This document shows, in pieces, positions 37,541 through 44,292 of a stretch of DNA of 64,000 nt. A model generated the notes under the pieces. That model did not search any database, was not told the DNA's origin, and was given only the letters and a program-made list of their open reading frames with translations. This DNA comes from Ensifer sp. BR816 (GTDB lineage: Bacteria > Pseudomonadota > Alphaproteobacteria > Rhizobiales > Rhizobiaceae). The translations under genes were made by a program, and so were the position numbers. The stretch covers positions 2,217,830 to 2,281,829 of the forward strand of contig NZ_KB905370.1 in the NCBI RefSeq assembly GCF_000378985.1, given 5' to 3'. Position 1 is the first letter of the stretch, and every line of letters begins with the position of its first letter.

Positions 37541-38629
37541 ATGGCCACTCTTCAGAATTTTGACGCCGAGATCGCCAAGACGCGGAGCGTCGTCGACGAG
37601 ATGCGCGGCAAGCTCGAACAGTCGGGCGTCGTGCTGGAGCAATTCGCCAAGGCGGACACCAAGCTCGGCGATGTCAATTTCGACATCGAGAACGCCCGCA
37701 TTCAGGACGTCCTCAAGCAGCAGAAGGCGATGGAAGCCAATATCGCCGATCTGATCATCGGCCTCGAAGATGCAACGAACGTCTTCGGTGCCGAGTTCGA
37801 GAGCATGAAGAACTATACGGGGTACGAGAAGTTCATCGGCATGTTCTCCAAGCAGTCGATGCAGCGGATGCGCACCGACCGGGTGCGCAACATGTCGCTC
37901 GCCGGCAACCTCCAGGAGCTGCTCGTCAAGTCCGACACCATCGTCGGCATCCTCAAGGAGCAGAAGGCGATCCTGGATCAGCGCTACAAGACCTCCGAGC
38001 AGAGCCTCATCCAGGTGATCGAGCGCCGCAAGGGCACGATGGCGGCGCTCGTGGAGACCCAGAAGCGCATCGAGGAACTCAATCCGCTGCTGCTCGACAT
38101 CGAGAACCGGATCGCGGCTTCCACCGACCAGACGACCCGCACCGACCTCGAGGCCGAGCGCTCGCGGCTGGCGACGGAATACAACGAGAAGCAGGCCAAG
38201 GAACAGGAACTGCTCGCCGAGAGCCAGACGCTCGAGCGCTATACCGCGATGTTCCAGACCTTCGTCGATTCGCTCAACAACCAGATCGCCGCGCAGAACA
38301 CGCTGATCAACAAGCTGACGATCGATACGGAGCAGCGCATCGTGCTCTACAAATCGCTGGAGGATTCGCTGAAGACAGCGGCGCAGCAGGATGTGGCGCA
38401 CAAGATCAACACGCTCGGCAGCCAGGTCGACACCGCGGCGGAAGAGACCATGGCCGGGATCGGCGCTGCCGCCCAACGCCACATCGGCGATTTGCTCGAA
38501 ATGCATGAAAAGAACATGCTTGCGACGCAGGATATCCAGCGGCGCAAGAAGCTCGCCGACGACGCCTTTGCCCGCCGCTTCCAGTCGGTGATGGACAAGC
38601 ACAATGCCGCAAACTACGTGAAGCAGTGA
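37541..38629 (+). CDS. Coiled-coil protein, TelA-like (toxic anion resistance type)
   Basis: 362 residues, soluble, strongly helical and charged, with no signal peptide or membrane segment. Long heptad-rich stretches cover about residues 130-345. The layout (SLNNQIAAQNTLINKLTIDTEQRIVLYKSLEDSL near 245) resembles TelA-family proteins, which were tied to tellurite and other toxic anions without a known mechanism; the match is by general pattern only. AGGGGATAGGAA precedes the ATG. It is the first gene of a five-gene operon ending with a DUF2333-like membrane protein, so a scaffolding role for the AAA ATPase encoded downstream is possible. Confidence 0.6.
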   Translation: MATLQNFDAEIAKTRSVVDEMRGKLEQSGVVLEQFAKADTKLGDVNFDIENARIQDVLKQQKAMEANIADLIIGLEDATNVFGAEFESMKNYTGYEKFIGMFSKQSMQRMRTDRVRNMSLAGNLQELLVKSDTIVGILKEQKAILDQRYKTSEQSLIQVIERRKGTMAALVETQKRIEELNPLLLDIENRIAASTDQTTRTDLEAERSRLATEYNEKQAKEQELLAESQTLERYTAMFQTFVDSLNNQIAAQNTLINKLTIDTEQRIVLYKSLEDSLKTAAQQDVAHKINTLGSQVDTAAEETMAGIGAAAQRHIGDLLEMHEKNMLATQDIQRRKKLADDAFARRFQSVMDKHNAANYVKQ

Positions 38630-38690
38630 TCGGCAAGGCTGCAATGACCAGCTTTCCGACCGCCTTTCGGCCGTTGCCGGAGGGGTTTAC

Positions 38691-39839
38691 ATGAATACCG
38701 CCGTATCGCCTGCCGTCAGGCAATATTTCACCTCGATCAGGGCCGCATTGGCCGGCCTGGAGCTGTTTCTCGGCGACCGAAATTCGCCGCTCTATCGCAA
38801 CACGGTCGTCGGCGAAGTTATCGTTCCCTATCTCATGCGGCTGAAGGCTTCGGTTGCCTGCTGGGAAAACCGCATCGGCTTCGTCGAGCATTTTCGAATC
38901 TCGCGCGCGGAGAGCGGCTTTCCCGTCTTCCAGAACGTGCTGGAACTTGAAAATGACCGGCAAAGCGCGGAGAAGCGACTGGCGAGCATCCCCTCCGCGG
39001 ATGCGCTGCGAGAGGAGATGGTGGATTTCATACTCCGGCAGAAGGCCTTTCCGGAGGCGCTGCAGGCCCGCATGGCCGAGCGGCTCTATCTCGAGCAGAT
39101 CGGCAAGGGAGATATCTTCTCGCCCTTCATCCTGCCGGAGACGATCCGGGTCGCCGTCAATCCGAAGACGATGCGGCCCTATTACGTCGTCGCCTGGGGT
39201 GCCTTTGACGGCACGCAAACGCTGCCGATGATCTACATGGCGACGATCGAGGACTCTTCGGAAAACATCGTCGAGATGCTGGTTACCGAAGACGGCAAGC
39301 TCAATCCGCAGGTCGACATCCCGCTGCCGGTCGGCGGGCTGCTCAATCCGGAGCTTGCGAGCCGCTTCGACGATTTCGCCTCGAAGAACAGCGCCTATTC
39401 GCTGACGCCGGTGACGATCGCCACCAATCTCGACAAGGATTTTCCGGAACTGCATCCGAAGCAGCTGCGACGCATCGTGCTCGGACCGTTCTATTCGGCC
39501 GGGATCACCGAGAACAATGCCCGGATCAACGACATCCTCTCGAAGGTGCGGAAGACCGAGAATGCATGGCTCTTGACCTGGACGGTGCAGGAAGTCTTCT
39601 CCCAGGCCGAGCGACCGGCCGAGCGCGGCTTCTGGTCGACGACGCCGGCGCAGGAGGAATTTCATATCGACACCGACAATCTCGAAGCCGCGCGCATGGG
39701 CGTCAGCGCCTATGAGAAACATGCCTTGGTGCCGCACGACGCCTATCAGGCGCTCTACGCGGCCGGCGAGGCGGCGCAGGTCTTCGGGGACTACAAGGTG
39801 CATGTGATCTCCGGCAACCAGGTGGTGAGCGAGGTTTAA
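38691..39839 (+). CDS. Uncharacterised protein of the 37.5-44.3 kb operon
   Basis: 382 residues. Not recognised. The first 150 or so residues are helical (RQYFTSIRAALAGLELFLGDRNSPLYRNTVVGEVIVPYL), and the rest looks like mixed alpha/beta (YYVVAWGAFDGTQTLPMIYMATIEDSSENIVEMLV). No signal peptide, membrane helix or nucleotide motif. It ends only 3 bp before the AAA ATPase gene and begins 61 bp after the coiled-coil gene, so it is surely cotranscribed and probably a partner of the ATPase. Confidence 0.8.
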   Translation: MNTAVSPAVRQYFTSIRAALAGLELFLGDRNSPLYRNTVVGEVIVPYLMRLKASVACWENRIGFVEHFRISRAESGFPVFQNVLELENDRQSAEKRLASIPSADALREEMVDFILRQKAFPEALQARMAERLYLEQIGKGDIFSPFILPETIRVAVNPKTMRPYYVVAWGAFDGTQTLPMIYMATIEDSSENIVEMLVTEDGKLNPQVDIPLPVGGLLNPELASRFDDFASKNSAYSLTPVTIATNLDKDFPELHPKQLRRIVLGPFYSAGITENNARINDILSKVRKTENAWLLTWTVQEVFSQAERPAERGFWSTTPAQEEFHIDTDNLEAARMGVSAYEKHALVPHDAYQALYAAGEAAQVFGDYKVHVISGNQVVSEV

Positions 39840-39842
39840 GCG

Positions 39843-41759
39843 ATGACGCTGAATACGGGCCTGACGACACTGCACGAAGATGAGATCGCCAACCATCAGG
39901 CGGTGGCCCAGAGCCTGGTCACCAAGCTCGTCATCCTCGAGCGGGACGAACCCTCGGCGGGCACGCCGATTGCGGGGACGGGCCGCCGCTTCGTCTCGAC
40001 CGTCTCGACCGGCGGTCAGCGCCGCACCCGAGAGGTGGAACTCGCCCGTACGATCCAGTCTGTGCGCGGCGCCGATCCGCTGCTTTCGCCGGCACAGCAC
40101 GCCGTCCTCTATCGAACACGGCGCGGCATTCAGGTGGCGCTCGCCGTTTCCGATGTGTTTGCACGGCAGACGCAACTCGAGCAATTGCAGGCGCGCAACT
40201 CGAGCGCACCGCTCGCCGGCGAGGATGCGGGACATTTCAAGGCGCTGCTCTCGGCCGCCGCCTATATCGCCGCCTTCACGCTTGCCGCCTATCTCGGCGC
40301 GACGTTGCAGGGCGAGGGAGAGCCGGTCGACGATGCCGCCGAGCCGGATTTTCTCTTCGATACGCCCCAGGACGCGCTGAAGAGCATGGTTGCCGGCCTC
40401 GATCGCAGCCTTGCCGGTGCGCCGGACGATCTGGCCCTGACGGCGCGGGCGCGCGCCTTTTCACGCGTCGCGATCGAGGGTCTGCTTGCCCGCAAGGCGC
40501 GCTTCACCGGGCTGCAGAACTTCGAGAATGTCCACATCCGGCTCGACCAGGATGACTTCACATTGAACGGCTTCGATGTCGCCCCCGGGCAGAAGCGCAA
40601 GCCGCTGGTCATGACCTTCAAGAAGCCGGAGGAGATCATCGGCAATCACATCGCCAAGTATCAGGCGCTGAAGCTCGCCAAGATGTTGATGGCCTATGAC
40701 TTCGACCGGCAGATGAATCCCTTTGTCGAGCTTGGCGGCTTCCTCTTCACCTTCATCGGCGACGGCATGCCGGGCACCGGCAAGACGATATTGATCCAGA
40801 TGCTTGCCGGTATGCTCCACGATTATTGCGGTGTCGCCGGATACGCCTTCCATTACGAGAATTTCGGCGTCGACCAGATCTCCTCCTATCAGGGCAAATC
40901 GGGCCAGAACTGCAAGGAGTTCGTCAACAACGTGATGAACCCGCGAGCGATCGGCTTCGGCACGATCGACGACGTCGACCAGGTGACGGCGAAGCGGTCC
41001 GACGATCGCGCTTCCGCCGGCCAGCACGAGGTGACGGCGGTGCTGATGGAGAGCTTCGCCGGCGCTTCGACCGTGGTGCGCGGCAATTGCACCTTCGGCA
41101 TGTTCTCGAACCATCCGGAGAATGTCGACGATGCCCTGCGTCAGAGGGCCGGCGCACGCTGGCTGGTCGACGGACCGCAGACGGAGGCCGACTATATCGA
41201 CATCTTCGCGCTGCTCGTCGGCAAGAACCACAAGATCCCGCTCGGGGGGCACGATCTCTATGCCGGCCAGGAGATCAAGCGCGCCGTCTCGCAATCCTAT
41301 GCGGCCCATGCACGGCCACAGGAGGATGGGCTTGCGGCGGTCTGGGAGCGTTACGAGAAGGAGAAGGGCAAGATCGCCTCCCTCGCCGATGTCGGCGCCT
41401 ATCTGCACATGATCAAGGGGGCGGAACCGCGCTTCACCGGCCGGGCGATCCGCAACATCACCGACGCGATCAAGATGCGGGCGATGGACGTCGAATTGCC
41501 GGACGACTGGTTCAAGGATGCGGGCTCCTTCATGCGCAAGTCCTACGACGAGAAGAAGGCGATGATCGAGGAACTGCGCGGCCCGATCACCATCGAGATC
41601 GTGCTGCAGGAAATCAACCGCTACGCCGACAGCGAATTCCGCTACACCGACAAGTCCGACGACGCGGCCGTCGCCGAGATCATCCGCCGCGAGCGTCAGC
41701 GCGAGAAGGCGATCGGCGAGATCGAGACGATGAAACGCGAGGGCAGGTGGCAGGGATGA
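39843..41759 (+). CDS. AAA-type ATPase with N-terminal extension
   Basis: 638 residues. The ATPase core has Walker A GDGMPGTGKT at residues 306-315, a Walker B-like TIDDVD near 375-379 (Asp-rich, with no DE pair), sensor-1-like SNHPEN with Asn423 and arginines at 433/435 that could act as a finger, and a helical lid rich in FTGRAIRNITDAIK near 533. The first 300 residues are not recognised and include a hydrophobic stretch at about 132-155 (FKALLSAAAYIAAFTLAAYL) that may insert in the membrane. Neighbours are all uncharacterised. Likely an energy-supplying remodelling ATPase; its client is unknown. Confidence 0.85.
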   Translation: MTLNTGLTTLHEDEIANHQAVAQSLVTKLVILERDEPSAGTPIAGTGRRFVSTVSTGGQRRTREVELARTIQSVRGADPLLSPAQHAVLYRTRRGIQVALAVSDVFARQTQLEQLQARNSSAPLAGEDAGHFKALLSAAAYIAAFTLAAYLGATLQGEGEPVDDAAEPDFLFDTPQDALKSMVAGLDRSLAGAPDDLALTARARAFSRVAIEGLLARKARFTGLQNFENVHIRLDQDDFTLNGFDVAPGQKRKPLVMTFKKPEEIIGNHIAKYQALKLAKMLMAYDFDRQMNPFVELGGFLFTFIGDGMPGTGKTILIQMLAGMLHDYCGVAGYAFHYENFGVDQISSYQGKSGQNCKEFVNNVMNPRAIGFGTIDDVDQVTAKRSDDRASAGQHEVTAVLMESFAGASTVVRGNCTFGMFSNHPENVDDALRQRAGARWLVDGPQTEADYIDIFALLVGKNHKIPLGGHDLYAGQEIKRAVSQSYAAHARPQEDGLAAVWERYEKEKGKIASLADVGAYLHMIKGAEPRFTGRAIRNITDAIKMRAMDVELPDDWFKDAGSFMRKSYDEKKAMIEELRGPITIEIVLQEINRYADSEFRYTDKSDDAAVAEIIRRERQREKAIGEIETMKREGRWQG

Positions 41760-41782
41760 CGGAAGAGAACACTGCCCCATGA
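41756..41782 (+). CDS. 8-codon minicistron bridging two operon genes
   Basis: ATG at 41756 overlaps the ATPase stop, and the frame MTEENTAP ends with TGA at 41780-41782, overlapping the ATG (41779) of the next gene. Both junctions are ATGA type. It probably serves reinitiation, since the next gene's own GGAAGAG site is about 12 bases from its ATG, too far to be good. Confidence 0.35.
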   Translation: MTEENTAP

Positions 41783-43068
41783 AGCGCCTTCTCGAAGCCG
41801 AGCTCATCTATGGTCGGCTGCTCGATATTTCCGAGCCGCATCTTGTCGCGCGTTACAACAAGGCGCTCGAAGGCTTCGGGCTGAAGCCGACGGGGCTCTC
41901 GCGGTTCAGCATCGATATGACCGGCTTTTCGCCCGAAATTGCCCAGGAACTCGGAGACCGCGACTATCTCGACCCGAACCGGGTTAATCGGCGATTCATC
42001 ATCCTGACGCCTGCCCAGGCGGACCTGCCGGTGGTCCACACGAGCTTTTCCAACACCGCGGCGCTGATGCATGAGTTCTTCAACGCCAACAGTCGGGCGA
42101 TCAACGCCGTCACCATCAAGGATGCGCTCTATGGCGAGATAGAGGACTCGGTGTCGGTGGTCGAGGACATCGACGATCTGCTGTCGATCAACGAGGTCCG
42201 CTTCCGCGTGCTTTCCGCCGAGGACATGCTCGGCAAGGCGGCGGAACTTCGGGAATTGGTCGATCGACTGAAAAAAGTGCCGAACGCCTGGGCCGATGAC
42301 GCGATGCTGGATCGCATGGTGGAGCTTGCCAAGCTGACCGGCGACATCCGCCAGAATGCGCTGGTCCCCGACGAACTGGTCTTTCGCCACGAGGCCTTCT
42401 GGGCCAATCACTTCGGCGGCGTCTATGTCTTCCTCGACGAGAAGACGACGACGGTGATCTGCGATCCGTCCGTACCCGGCTTCCGGCGTTCGCGCCCATG
42501 GCAGGTGAGCTACATCGCCATCACCGATCATGCACGCATCTACGATTTCCTGGCGTCGACCAATCGGCTGCAACTGCCGCAGGCGTCCTGGGTGCAGGAA
42601 TCGGGGCTGTTCCAGCATCGCGCCGACATGGCCATCCGCGGGTTGATCAATGACACGGATCCTGATGCGGATCTCCTCAACGCCGATCGGATCTGGCTGC
42701 AGACCTGGATCCATCGCAATGCCGCACTCGTCGCTCGCGATGGCAGCTATCCCTTCCTGCAGGAAATGTCCCGGTCGATCGCCGCGACGGGCACGATCAA
42801 GATGCAGGACGTTGCCGCAGAGAATCGATTCCTGCTGGTACGGGCCGCTCCCGACCATCCGGACAGATGGCTCGTCAACCAACTGATTGCACAGCTCGTT
42901 CCGCGCGACTTCGTCTCGCGATTCGTGTTCGACAAGCAGGGATTCTATGGCGCTTACGAGCACTACAGCGAAAAGTTCCGCGAATATGTTGTGGCGACCC
43001 TGACGGGCACATATCTGAAAGACAAGACCACCTTTCGCCACAAGCTTTACGGTCTCAAAGAGGAATAG
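41779..43068 (+). CDS. Uncharacterised protein (probably DUF6638)
   Basis: 429 residues, no signal peptide or membrane helix. From memory of similar rhizobial annotations it is probably the DUF6638 family, whose function is unknown. Visible landmarks are an N-terminal region MKRLLEAELIYGRLLDISEPHLVARYNKALEGFG, a central acidic segment DSVSVVEDIDDLLSINEVRFRVL near residue 118, and a C-terminal LVPRDFVSRFVFDKQGFYGAYEHYSEKF. Its start overlaps an 8-codon minicistron that starts in the ATPase stop, so the two proteins are likely made in fixed proportion. It ends 3 bp before the DUF2333-like gene. Confidence 0.82.
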   Translation: MKRLLEAELIYGRLLDISEPHLVARYNKALEGFGLKPTGLSRFSIDMTGFSPEIAQELGDRDYLDPNRVNRRFIILTPAQADLPVVHTSFSNTAALMHEFFNANSRAINAVTIKDALYGEIEDSVSVVEDIDDLLSINEVRFRVLSAEDMLGKAAELRELVDRLKKVPNAWADDAMLDRMVELAKLTGDIRQNALVPDELVFRHEAFWANHFGGVYVFLDEKTTTVICDPSVPGFRRSRPWQVSYIAITDHARIYDFLASTNRLQLPQASWVQESGLFQHRADMAIRGLINDTDPDADLLNADRIWLQTWIHRNAALVARDGSYPFLQEMSRSIAATGTIKMQDVAAENRFLLVRAAPDHPDRWLVNQLIAQLVPRDFVSRFVFDKQGFYGAYEHYSEKFREYVVATLTGTYLKDKTTFRHKLYGLKEE

Positions 43069-43071
43069 GAC

Positions 43072-44292
43072 ATGCTCGATCCGATCGTTGTGTTTTTTCA
43101 GCGCGTGTTCACGGCGATCGGCCGCGGCATAGGTCTGGCGGTTTCCTGGCTCCTCTGGCCGTTCGTTGCGCTCGCCAACTGGTATCGGGCGCGGGGCTGG
43201 ATCATCAAGGGGCCGATCGGCCTGGTGCTGCTCGGGCTGATTTTCTTCTACGGCTATTTCATCTGGCAGACGCAGGCCTGGACCAATTTCGATCCGGACT
43301 ATGTCAATCGCTACAAGCTCGCCGAGCGCAAGGTGCCGGCGGGTTCGCCGATCAGCGGCCCCGGCGCCACGACGGGACAATCCGGCAGCGCGGCGGCTGC
43401 CAGCCAGGCCGCAGCCGTGGTGCCCCCGAACGGGTCGACCACCGAAGCGCTCGACATGGTGCAGCTGCCTGCCGGCACGGTCTGCCAGACCTCGGCGATC
43501 GTCGATGTCGCGGCCGATCTCATCGACCTCAACGTCAACCAGAACGCCTGGATTTCTTCGATGCTCGCCTACAAGCTCGGTCTGTTCGGGATGGACTGGG
43601 ACGACACGCCCTGGCTCGACAATAAGGCCTCGTTCCAGCGCGGCATCAACCAGGCGGTGCGCCGCACCACCGTCGAACTGGTCGACTCGCTCGGCCGCGT
43701 ACGCGGCACCTCCGGCGTCAACAACGACCTGCAGGCGGCCCGCGGCAACATTCAGTTCGACGAGGAAACCTGGTATTTCGGCATCAATCCGTTCGGTCCG
43801 AAGACTCCGACGCCAAGCTTTTACCGCGCCGCGGAGCGCGACCTTCGGAAGTTCAATGTTTCGCTCGGCAAATGCGAGGCGATCTTCGACGGCCGCTCCG
43901 ACAACATGGTCGAGTTCCTCGACCGCATCGCCAACGACCTCGGCAACACCTCGGCGATCATCCGCGAGCGCTCGGAGTTCCACAATGGCGGCTGGTTCGA
44001 TACGCGCGCCGACGACCGCTTCTGGTTCGCCTTCGGCCAGCTCTACGGCTACTACGGCATTCTCTCGGCGGCCGGTGCCGATTTCGAGAATGTCGTCGCC
44101 CAGCGCGGGCTGATGCCGATCTACACGGAAACGATGAAGCAGCTTCGCTCGGCGCTGCGCATCCAGCCGCTGATCATTTCGAACGGCCGCGAGGACGGCT
44201 GGATCATGCCGACGCATCTGGCGACGATGGGCTTCTATATTCTCCGCGTGCGGTCGAACCTCGTTGAGATGCGCGACATCCTTGCCCGCTGA
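43072..44292 (+). CDS. DUF2333-family membrane protein
   Basis: 406 residues. One strong transmembrane helix at about residues 44-65 ([22 protein letters not shown]), preceded by a second amphipathic or hydrophobic stretch at 19-36, then a proline/alanine-rich linker and a large domain, probably periplasmic. The latter has the recognisable DUF2333 pattern: [31 protein letters not shown] near residue 150 and [25 protein letters not shown] near 315. Function unknown. Last gene of the five-gene operon; it would anchor the complex at the inner membrane. Confidence 0.8.

What the first reader, a model, noticed from the sequence alone, without database searches (positions are those of the whole stretch)
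37541..44292. Uncharacterised five-gene operon: TelA-like coiled coil, unknown, AAA ATPase, DUF6638-like, DUF2333 membrane protein
Five same-strand genes, four of them with gaps of 3 bp or less or linked by a minicistron, encode a soluble coiled-coil protein, an unknown protein, an ATPase with Walker A at residues 306-315 and a possible membrane segment in an unrecognised 300-residue N-terminus, a second unknown, and a membrane protein with a large, probably periplasmic domain. The architecture suggests an ATP-driven complex at the inner membrane. It sits between housekeeping genes (tdk, fhs), without mobile elements or unusual composition, so it looks like an inherited core function and not a defence island. 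Nothing in the sequence gives its role. The ATPase, the coiled coil and the DUF2333 anchor are the parts most worth testing.
Basis: partly seen in the sequence, partly recalled or inferred. Interest (0 to 1): 0.75.

Follow-up and report, generated by a model that had tools for sequence, protein, structure and literature searches.

The report
AAA operon with swappable toxin slot
Four neighbouring bacterial genes of unknown function, built around an ATP-driven protein machine, travel together across distant bacteria and very often carry a changeable toxin or nuclease gene at one fixed place, which suggests a stress or defence device rather than plain housekeeping.

Summary
The core is four genes: A (coiled coil), B (no family), C (classical AAA ATPase), D (DUF6638). 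They occur together, in order, in Rhizobiaceae, other alphaproteobacterial families and a Vibrio megaplasmid. Of 63 Rhizobiaceae genomes without C, D is in 1 and A in 5; four of those A genes are diverged and lack a conserved 22-residue block, the fifth is in an incomplete genome. E (DUF2333) is separate, kept in 27 of the 63; elsewhere DUF1523 takes its place. A is not TelA by the tests run.
Main finding: the C-D junction is a cargo slot, with an insert over 300 bp in 82 of 154 distinct loci against 10, 8 and 0 at the other junctions. Cargo is mostly toxin-antitoxin pairs and DUF559 nucleases, co-directional and often replaced. The window's slot is empty. I read it as a membrane-linked AAA machine with exchangeable toxic outputs; function is inferred, not shown.

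The parts
37541..38629 (+). Gene A, 362 aa, soluble mostly helical/coiled-coil protein; core gene
   Evidence: ORF and translation; no family above cut-off in four libraries; present in 80 of 80 named relatives; 37-39% identical in Vibrio
38354..38419 (+). Residues 272-293 of A, 22-residue block (SLEDSLKTAAQQDVAHKINTLG), conserved to Vibrio, absent from all five examined A genes that stand beside E without B-C-D
   Evidence: Alignments
38691..39839 (+). Gene B, 382 aa, no family; helical N-terminal part plus alpha/beta part; core gene
   Evidence: AlphaFold2 model mean pLDDT 87.7, no clear fold match
39843..41759 (+). Gene C, 638 aa, classical AAA ATPase with an unrecognised N-terminal part of about 290 residues; core gene
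   Evidence: Pfam AAA 1.3e-10; nearest solved chains AFG2 and proteasome-type AAA, E about 1e-5
40758..40787 (+). Walker A of C, residues 306-315 GDGMPGTGKT, nearly invariant
40884..40895 (+). Putative pore loop 1 of C, residues 348-351 (SYQG); Y349 invariant; motif assignment recalled
   Evidence: Alignment
40953..40982 (+). Walker B region of C, residues 371-380 GFGTIDDVDQ (DD, not DE)
   Evidence: Alignment
41109..41159 (+). Sensor 1 / arginine-finger region of C, residues 423-439; motif assignment recalled
   Evidence: Alignment
41756..41782 (+). Empty cargo slot between C and D; 8-codon minicistron overlapping C's stop and D's start by 4 bases each
   Evidence: Sequence; slot occupied in 82 of 154 distinct related loci
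41779..43068 (+). Gene D, 429 aa, DUF6638; core gene
   Evidence: Pfam PF20343 3.5e-75; AlphaFold2 model mean pLDDT 81.2, no clear fold match
43072..44292 (+). Gene E, 406 aa, DUF2333 membrane protein with large, probably periplasmic domain; optional Rhizobiaceae partner, not core
   Evidence: Pfam PF10095 4.2e-16; most hydrophobic window within the first 62 residues in 21 of 21 aligned rows; retained in 27 of 63 C-less genomes

Best explanation
A-B-C-D is one functional unit: an AAA ATPase (C) with three dedicated partners. Shown: the four genes co-occur, are colinear and are lost together; AAA motifs are intact; the C-D junction is a preferred site for toxin-antitoxin and nuclease genes that nearly always read in the operon's direction and are exchanged often. 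Inferred: C forms a ring that uses ATP to pull on or remodel a partner through its pore; A is the coiled-coil scaffold or substrate, and its 272-293 block is the contact with B, C or D; B and D are adaptors; the lineage-specific membrane proteins (DUF2333, DUF1523, SPFH) tie the machine to the inner membrane. Also inferred: the machine responds to envelope stress or phage attack, and the slot gene is its exchangeable toxic output, dispensable in some hosts, including this one.
For: Co-occurrence: A-E in 80 of 80 named relatives; A-D in 165 of 170 loci examined, which include some genomes twice; of the other five, four are cut by a contig end and one (L249) has D displaced (D found); 11 of 11 further non-Rhizobiaceae loci; in the class sample 7 of 385 genomes have DUF6638 over the cut-off, and the six besides the own genome each have A-B-C-D in order; Vibrio plasmid. 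Co-loss: of 63 Rhizobiaceae genomes without C, D in 1 (an 83%-complete genome; D lies 159 bp from the contig end) and A in 5. Of those 5, G299 is 68% complete; the other four, plus R. leguminosarum pSK03, carry an A directly beside E without residues 272-293, at dN/dS 0.19-0.29 against 0.087-0.16 for A in four full-operon pairs with a defined value. Slot: inserts over 300 bp at C-D 82/154, A-B 10/154, B-C 8/154, D-E 0/146 (Fisher C-D vs A-B 1.9e-20, which ignores relatedness). Cargo labels: DUF559 33, ParE+HTH pair 16, Phd+PIN 13, RHH+ParE 9, MqsR/MqsA-like 3, AbiJ_NTD4 1, DUF3825 1, MazF 1, HicB-like 1, other 4. In C-D of the 80 long loci 79 of 79 probe-matched cargo ORFs are co-directional, and the same 11 probes find none in 431 + 380 kb of flank. 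Turnover: at least 59 state changes on a 154-row tree (300 shuffles: mean 75, minimum 68). The last toxin-antitoxin gene ends within 25 bp of D's start in 38 of 41 loci, and 14 of 74 cargo loci show a 4-base overlap. The window genome has 2 DUF559 and 3 ParE matches in 6.95 Mb.
Against: The slot has no insert over 300 bp in 72 of 154 loci, including the window, so the core does not need cargo. Most toxins come with their own antitoxin and could be self-contained addiction modules. DUF559, the commonest cargo, is mostly not packed against D: 28 of 33 end 18-1536 bp before it, and DUF559 also sits once at A-B and twice at B-C. Some slot genes run the other way: HicB-like genes in L285 and L290, a phospholipase-D-like gene in L098, a transposase in L174. 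Slot state has phylogenetic signal: 59 changes is below every shuffle. No PADLOC model fits A-D beyond weak hits (TRIP13 8e-5, IetA 0.004). No phage or viral relative of C was found. No interaction, ATPase activity or phenotype is tested. The flank control uses probes taken from the inserts, so it under-counts other toxin families. The place between tdk and fhs is inherited in Rhizobiaceae, as for housekeeping genes.
Confidence: 0.42

Rival explanations
1. A-D is an envelope or protein quality-control machine with a housekeeping-like role; the slot genes are passengers that act as addiction modules and protect a loss-prone operon from deletion.
For: No insert over 300 bp in 72 of 154 loci. Toxin-antitoxin pairs carry their own antitoxin. 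A DUF559 Vsr-like protein in Caulobacter is reported to be able to stabilise an unlinked methyltransferase gene (PMC12907096, passages read). C is often lost in the family, 63 of 151. Membrane partners DUF2333, DUF1523, SPFH.
Against: Addiction cassettes do not need the tight packing against D seen for toxin-antitoxin pairs or strict co-direction; unaccompanied HEPN-like, AbiJ_NTD4 and DUF3825 genes also use the slot.
Confidence: 0.35
2. The C-D junction is merely a permissive insertion site: cargo is swapped by recombination between the conserved C and D flanks and has no functional link to the core.
For: In 18 locus pairs with equally long C proteins over 95% identical the slot state differs; similarity breaks near C's stop and resumes at D's start in the junctions printed; 20 of 33 DUF559 inserts carry palindromic repeats.
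Against: Other junctions of the same operon, including the looser A-B spacer, receive few inserts; cargo is mostly of one kind (toxins, nucleases) and was not found antisense in the five main classes.
Confidence: 0.18
3. One reading: all five families form one ATP-driven inner-membrane complex with an ancestral core role.
For: D and E are 3 bp apart in the window and no insert over 300 bp separates them in 146 of 146 distinct loci that have both.
Against: E occurs in 27 of 63 Rhizobiaceae genomes without C, in many genomes with no A-D beside it, and A-D occurs without E beside it in other families and Vibrio.
Confidence: 0.05

Closest known systems
Classical AAA ATPases (AFG2/Cdc48, proteasome-activating nucleotidase, i-AAA protease domain)
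   Same: Walker A, Walker B, SRH-like region and YQG at the pore-loop position (motif names recalled); best PDB sequence matches E about 1e-5 over residues 307-435
   Different: Unrecognised N-terminal part of about 290 residues; Walker B ends DD; fixed partners A, B and D
TRIP13/Pch2-like AAA of HORMA/CD-NTase defence systems (PADLOC TRIP13 model)
   Same: Weak AAA-domain match 8.3e-5; 1.3e-4 for a distant C
   Different: No CD-NTase or other CBASS gene recognised in A-D; B and D models show no clear fold match
TelA/KlaA family (PF05816)
   Same: Helical coiled-coil character; a short local similarity around an EK..G motif
   Different: No Pfam match; profile-profile probability 1.7%
Defence loci with nested or exchangeable effector genes (CBASS, type I restriction, BREX); recalled, not searched
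   Same: A fixed gene core with a variable toxic or nuclease gene at a set place
   Different: No restriction, methylase, cyclase or helicase family recognised among A-D; the slot is empty in about half the loci
Type II toxin-antitoxin modules (ParE/RelE, PIN, MqsR-like, MazF) and DUF559 Vsr-like nucleases
   Same: These are the cargo itself
   Different: Cargo only; they do not explain A-D and are absent from the window's operon

Membership tests
AAA (PF00004) | Profile match over curated cut-off with Walker A and Walker B | tested here: met
   42.2 bits against 21.2; motifs nearly invariant in 20 aligned C proteins
DUF6638 (PF20343) | Profile match over curated cut-off, full length | tested here: met
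   254 bits against 27, model 2-413 of 439
DUF2333 (PF10095) | Profile match over curated cut-off | tested here: met
   59.3 bits against 22 for E
TelA (PF05816) | Profile match over curated cut-off (30 bits) | tested here: not met
   A has no TelA match up to E 1; no TelA match at E 0.001 in the genome, while 3 of 14 control genomes ring; hhalign probability 1.7% against three TelA proteins
TRIP13-HORMA-CD-NTase (CBASS) | TRIP13 AAA plus HORMA and CD-NTase partners | tested here: inconclusive
   Weak TRIP13 hit only; no HORMA or CD-NTase model hit in A-E; fold matches of B and D unclear
Any catalogued anti-phage system (PADLOC 2.0.0, 2023) | Convincing match of core proteins to a system's models | tested here: not met
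   Window A-E: only TRIP13 8e-5 and IetA 0.004 for C; distant relatives: equally weak hits
Anti-phage defence system in function | Protection against phage | not testable with these tools
   Needs a plaque assay
Modular conflict system with exchangeable effectors | Conserved core plus variable toxic gene at a fixed place | tested here: met
   82 of 154 loci have an insert; nine toxin- or nuclease-type labels, some resting on recall
Modular conflict system with exchangeable effectors | Core controls the effector | not testable with these tools

The most novel reading that the evidence does not exclude
A-B-C-D is the sensor-and-switch core of an undescribed class of bacterial conflict (anti-phage or envelope-stress) system: an AAA ATPase that gates interchangeable RNases and nucleases (ParE/RelE, PIN, MqsR-like, MazF, HEPN-like, DUF559) plugged into a single slot between C and D, expressed with D and tied to the membrane by lineage-specific proteins.
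Probability: 0.3. Interest if true: 0.88.

Novelty: new variant of a known kind. Interest (0 to 1): 0.66.

Why it matters
Three of the four core proteins (A, B, D) have no known function in the libraries searched, and the B and D models have no clear fold match. If the slot reading is right, a group of 'hypothetical protein / ATP-binding protein' genes in nitrogen-fixing symbionts and other bacteria becomes a testable conflict system, and the slot is a natural experiment: near-identical cores carrying different toxins. Even if the cargo is only addiction genes, it is an unusual case of toxin-antitoxin pairs repeatedly captured as packed members of one chromosomal operon. The 22-residue block of A gives a concrete contact to mutate.

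Tried and rejected
TelA membership of A: tested and not met. B and D as homologues of each other: profile comparison probability 0.1%. PDB sequence search with profiles of A, B, D, E: nothing better than E 0.39. Fold of B: confident model, but Foldseek best E 0.35 and VIA-align best Z 5.2 (urate oxidase, rmsd 3.7-3.8, 124 aligned), with other beta-beta-alpha-alpha-beta-beta (T-fold, name recalled) enzymes at about Z 3.5-5.2, in the range the tool calls common arrangement; the viral library gave no match at E 0.001 or better. Fold of D: best Z 6.4 over 46-62 residues, not interpreted. Viral or phage origin: none found. C as a membrane protein: hydropathy of the segment varies 0.97-1.91, left open. 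Literature: DUF6638 0 papers; DUF2333 1 paper, a T6SS locus list, passages read; DUF1523 4 and DUF559 14 papers, listings only except PMC12907096, passages read; AAA+TelA+tellurite+SPFH+operon 0; two further combinations 0. So no functional study was found in these searches of the held open library; subscription papers are not covered.

Weak points in my own calls: the fhs query started one base out of frame, so its fhs identities and presences are not used. Start codons of relatives were chosen by a script, so single gap values can be off. One search counts 154 distinct C proteins, not independent lineages; the Fisher values ignore relatedness, hence the tree count (FastTree only). 'Empty' means no insert over 300 bp; some such loci have spacers of 60-300 bp. 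B was not searched in the 63 C-less genomes. For R. leguminosarum pSK03 only 25 kb of one plasmid was read. The flank control used 11 probes taken from inserts (nine from the C-D slot). Cargo names HigBA, MqsR/MqsA and HicB are partly recalled: Pfam gives ParE_toxin plus HTH_3 for the first, no match for the second and only a weak other match for the third. HEPN-like in L324, L328, L329 rests on a DUF4145 match under its cut-off (for L324 and L328) and recalled R-x4-6-H motifs. The phospholipase-D-like and pilin-like labels of two other inserts, the AAA motif names and the naming of group f24 as Rhodobacteraceae-like are recalled.
Full report
What is in the window. Five same-strand ORFs lie at 37541-44292. 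I call them A to E. The window is part of a 6.95 Mb genome whose nearest named relatives are Sinorhizobium and Ensifer. C has an AAA match over the cut-off, D is DUF6638, E is DUF2333; A and B match nothing over a cut-off in Pfam or NCBIfam and nothing in PADLOC or PHROGs.

The unit is A-B-C-D. In 80 of 80 named relatives, the best 80 of 581 confirmed by their C, A to E are present and colinear. In the class sample 7 of 385 genomes have DUF6638 over the cut-off (an eighth match is below it), and the six besides the own genome (four from group f24, one each from f157 and f106) all have A-B-C-D in order with no E within the 20 kb read. Eleven further non-Rhizobiaceae loci (nine f24, one f179, and one f197 from another class of the phylum) also have A-B-C-D and no E within 19 kb. 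In the first six loci one gene cluster follows D; three members tested are DUF1523, and a profile of the six finds the same gene after D in all eleven further loci. Four Vibrio plasmid records of about 0.9 Mb (three V. parahaemolyticus, one V. vulnificus) carry C at about 41% and A at 37-39% identity; the one read has A-B-C-D and no E. A R. leguminosarum plasmid carries A-B-C-D with no E in the 21 kb read.

Position. In Rhizobiaceae the annotated neighbours are the choline transporter, tdk and fhs. Among 19 loci from outside that place, several f24 pairs share flanking genes (up to 24 ORFs between two close genomes), so the position is partly inherited there too; L155, L327, the Vibrio plasmid and the R. 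leguminosarum plasmid share none with the others at E 1e-10.

Co-loss. C is found in 88 of 151 Rhizobiaceae genomes, the window's included. In the 63 without C, D was found in 1, A in 5 and E in 27. The D exception (G333) is 83% complete and its D lies 159 bp from the contig end. One A exception (G299) is 68% complete and has A followed by the start of B. The other four A genes, and one in named R. leguminosarum pSK03, sit directly beside E, are strongly diverged, and all lack residues 272-293, a block kept from rhizobia to Vibrio in the aligned A proteins that accompany C. Their dN/dS is 0.19-0.29, against 0.087, 0.099, 0.121 and 0.159 for A in four full-operon pairs (a fifth pair was saturated), while E beside them is at 0.063-0.084, lower than or like E in the five full-operon pairs (0.083-0.438). 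The simplest reading is that A depends on B, C or D through that block and E does not. The five reduced cases come from few lineages, so the deletion may be one or two events. One C-positive genome (G220) has D about 9 kb away on the other strand.

The slot. In 154 loci with distinct C proteins (165 of 170 loci had A-D), an insert over 300 bp sits between C and D in 82, between A and B in 10, between B and C in 8 and between D and E in 0 of 146. Contents of C-D by label: DUF559 33, ParE-type toxin plus HTH antitoxin 16, Phd plus PIN 13, RHH plus ParE 9, MqsR/MqsA-like 3, AbiJ_NTD4 1, DUF3825 1, MazF (with HicB-like) 1, HicB-like 1, other 4 (a phospholipase-D-like gene on the other strand, two pilin-like genes, a small membrane protein, a short insert), no insert 72. 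DUF559 also sits once at A-B and twice at B-C. In the 11 further non-Rhizobiaceae loci three slots hold a HEPN-like protein (weak match), four a small hydrophobic protein of 95-111 aa and four nothing sizeable. Of 7 more Rhizobiaceae loci fetched with them, at least one of them (L334) a repeat of a locus already counted, four hold DUF559 by reading, one a 225-bp gap without a recognised gene and two are empty. S. meliloti has DUF559 plus an ISRm16 transposase there.

Why this is hard to read as random insertion. With the same 11 probes, 79 of 79 cargo ORFs in C-D of the 80 long loci run with the operon, and none was found in 431 kb upstream and 380 kb downstream. The window genome has 2 DUF559 and 3 ParE matches in all. 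The tree of A plus C needs at least 59 changes of slot state, against a shuffled mean of 75 and minimum of 68, so there is some inheritance and much turnover. Cargo identity follows C identity strongly for nine ParE (Spearman 0.92), moderately for 33 DUF559 (0.55) and weakly for HigB-like (0.11), HTH (0.27) and PIN (0.27). Eighteen pairs with equally long C over 95% identical differ in slot state. In the junctions printed, similarity stops near C's stop codon and resumes at D's ATG. The last toxin-antitoxin gene ends within 25 bp of D's start in 38 of 41 loci, and 14 of 74 cargo loci show the 4-base stop-start overlap; DUF559 is mostly looser, 28 of 33 ending 18-1536 bp before D. The window's minicistron has the 4-base overlap on both sides. 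I take it as the empty state of the slot, not as a gene.

Mechanism. C keeps Walker A, a Walker B region with DD, a YQG motif at the pore-loop position and the arginine-rich SRH region, nearly invariant across 20 aligned sequences (motif names recalled). An ATP-driven ring is therefore likely but untested. B has a confident model without a clear fold match, D a fair one without. E, DUF1523 and the SPFH protein found between A and B in 6 of 154 loci point to the inner membrane. Whether the cargo is the machine's output or a set of addiction genes that keep the operon in the genome is open: the first is my preferred reading because of the direction, the packing of the toxin-antitoxin pairs and the unaccompanied nuclease-type genes; the second is supported by self-contained toxin-antitoxin pairs and by the reported stabilising effect of a DUF559 Vsr-like protein in Caulobacter (PMC12907096, passages).

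Verdict. Function remains inferred.

Noticed in passing
L033 9918-10786; DUF559 slots in general: DUF559 genes in the slot come with GC-rich palindromic repeats in 20 of 33 loci, while 0 of 49 other cargo inserts have them; the window has none. They may mark how these genes move.
   Followed up: partly
A-B junction of L067, L078, L083, L099, L102 and one further locus: An SPFH/Band 7 membrane protein gene sits between A and B in 6 of 154 loci, co-directional.
   Followed up: partly
B-C junction, e.g. L100 and L335: Fic-domain genes sit between B and C in 3 of 154 loci, and in the later locus L335.
   Followed up: no
L249 / G220 contig C14: D lies about 9 kb from A-B-C on the opposite strand, the one clear break of the gene order seen in a Rhizobiaceae genome.
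   Followed up: no
phylum sample: DUF2333 is widespread: 68 of 299 genomes of the phylum sample have a match, and 14 of 14 such loci read from outside Rhizobiaceae had no A-D gene beside it.
   Followed up: partly
L174 (CP090106.1): A 3.7 Mb S. meliloti record titled pSymB carries the choline transporter/tdk/fhs region; by size and content it looks like a mislabelled chromosome.
   Followed up: no
L075: A contig from a MAG named Arenimonas carries a rhizobial operon about 80% identical in C, probably binning contamination.
   Followed up: no
L171 15124-18585: On the Vibrio plasmid the core is followed by a gene annotated mfd (transcription-repair coupling factor).
   Followed up: no
L324-L330, L332, L333 between D and DUF1523: A small hydrophobic ORF (about 73-100 aa) recurs between D and the DUF1523 gene in several non-Rhizobiaceae loci; the one tested has no Pfam match.
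   Followed up: no
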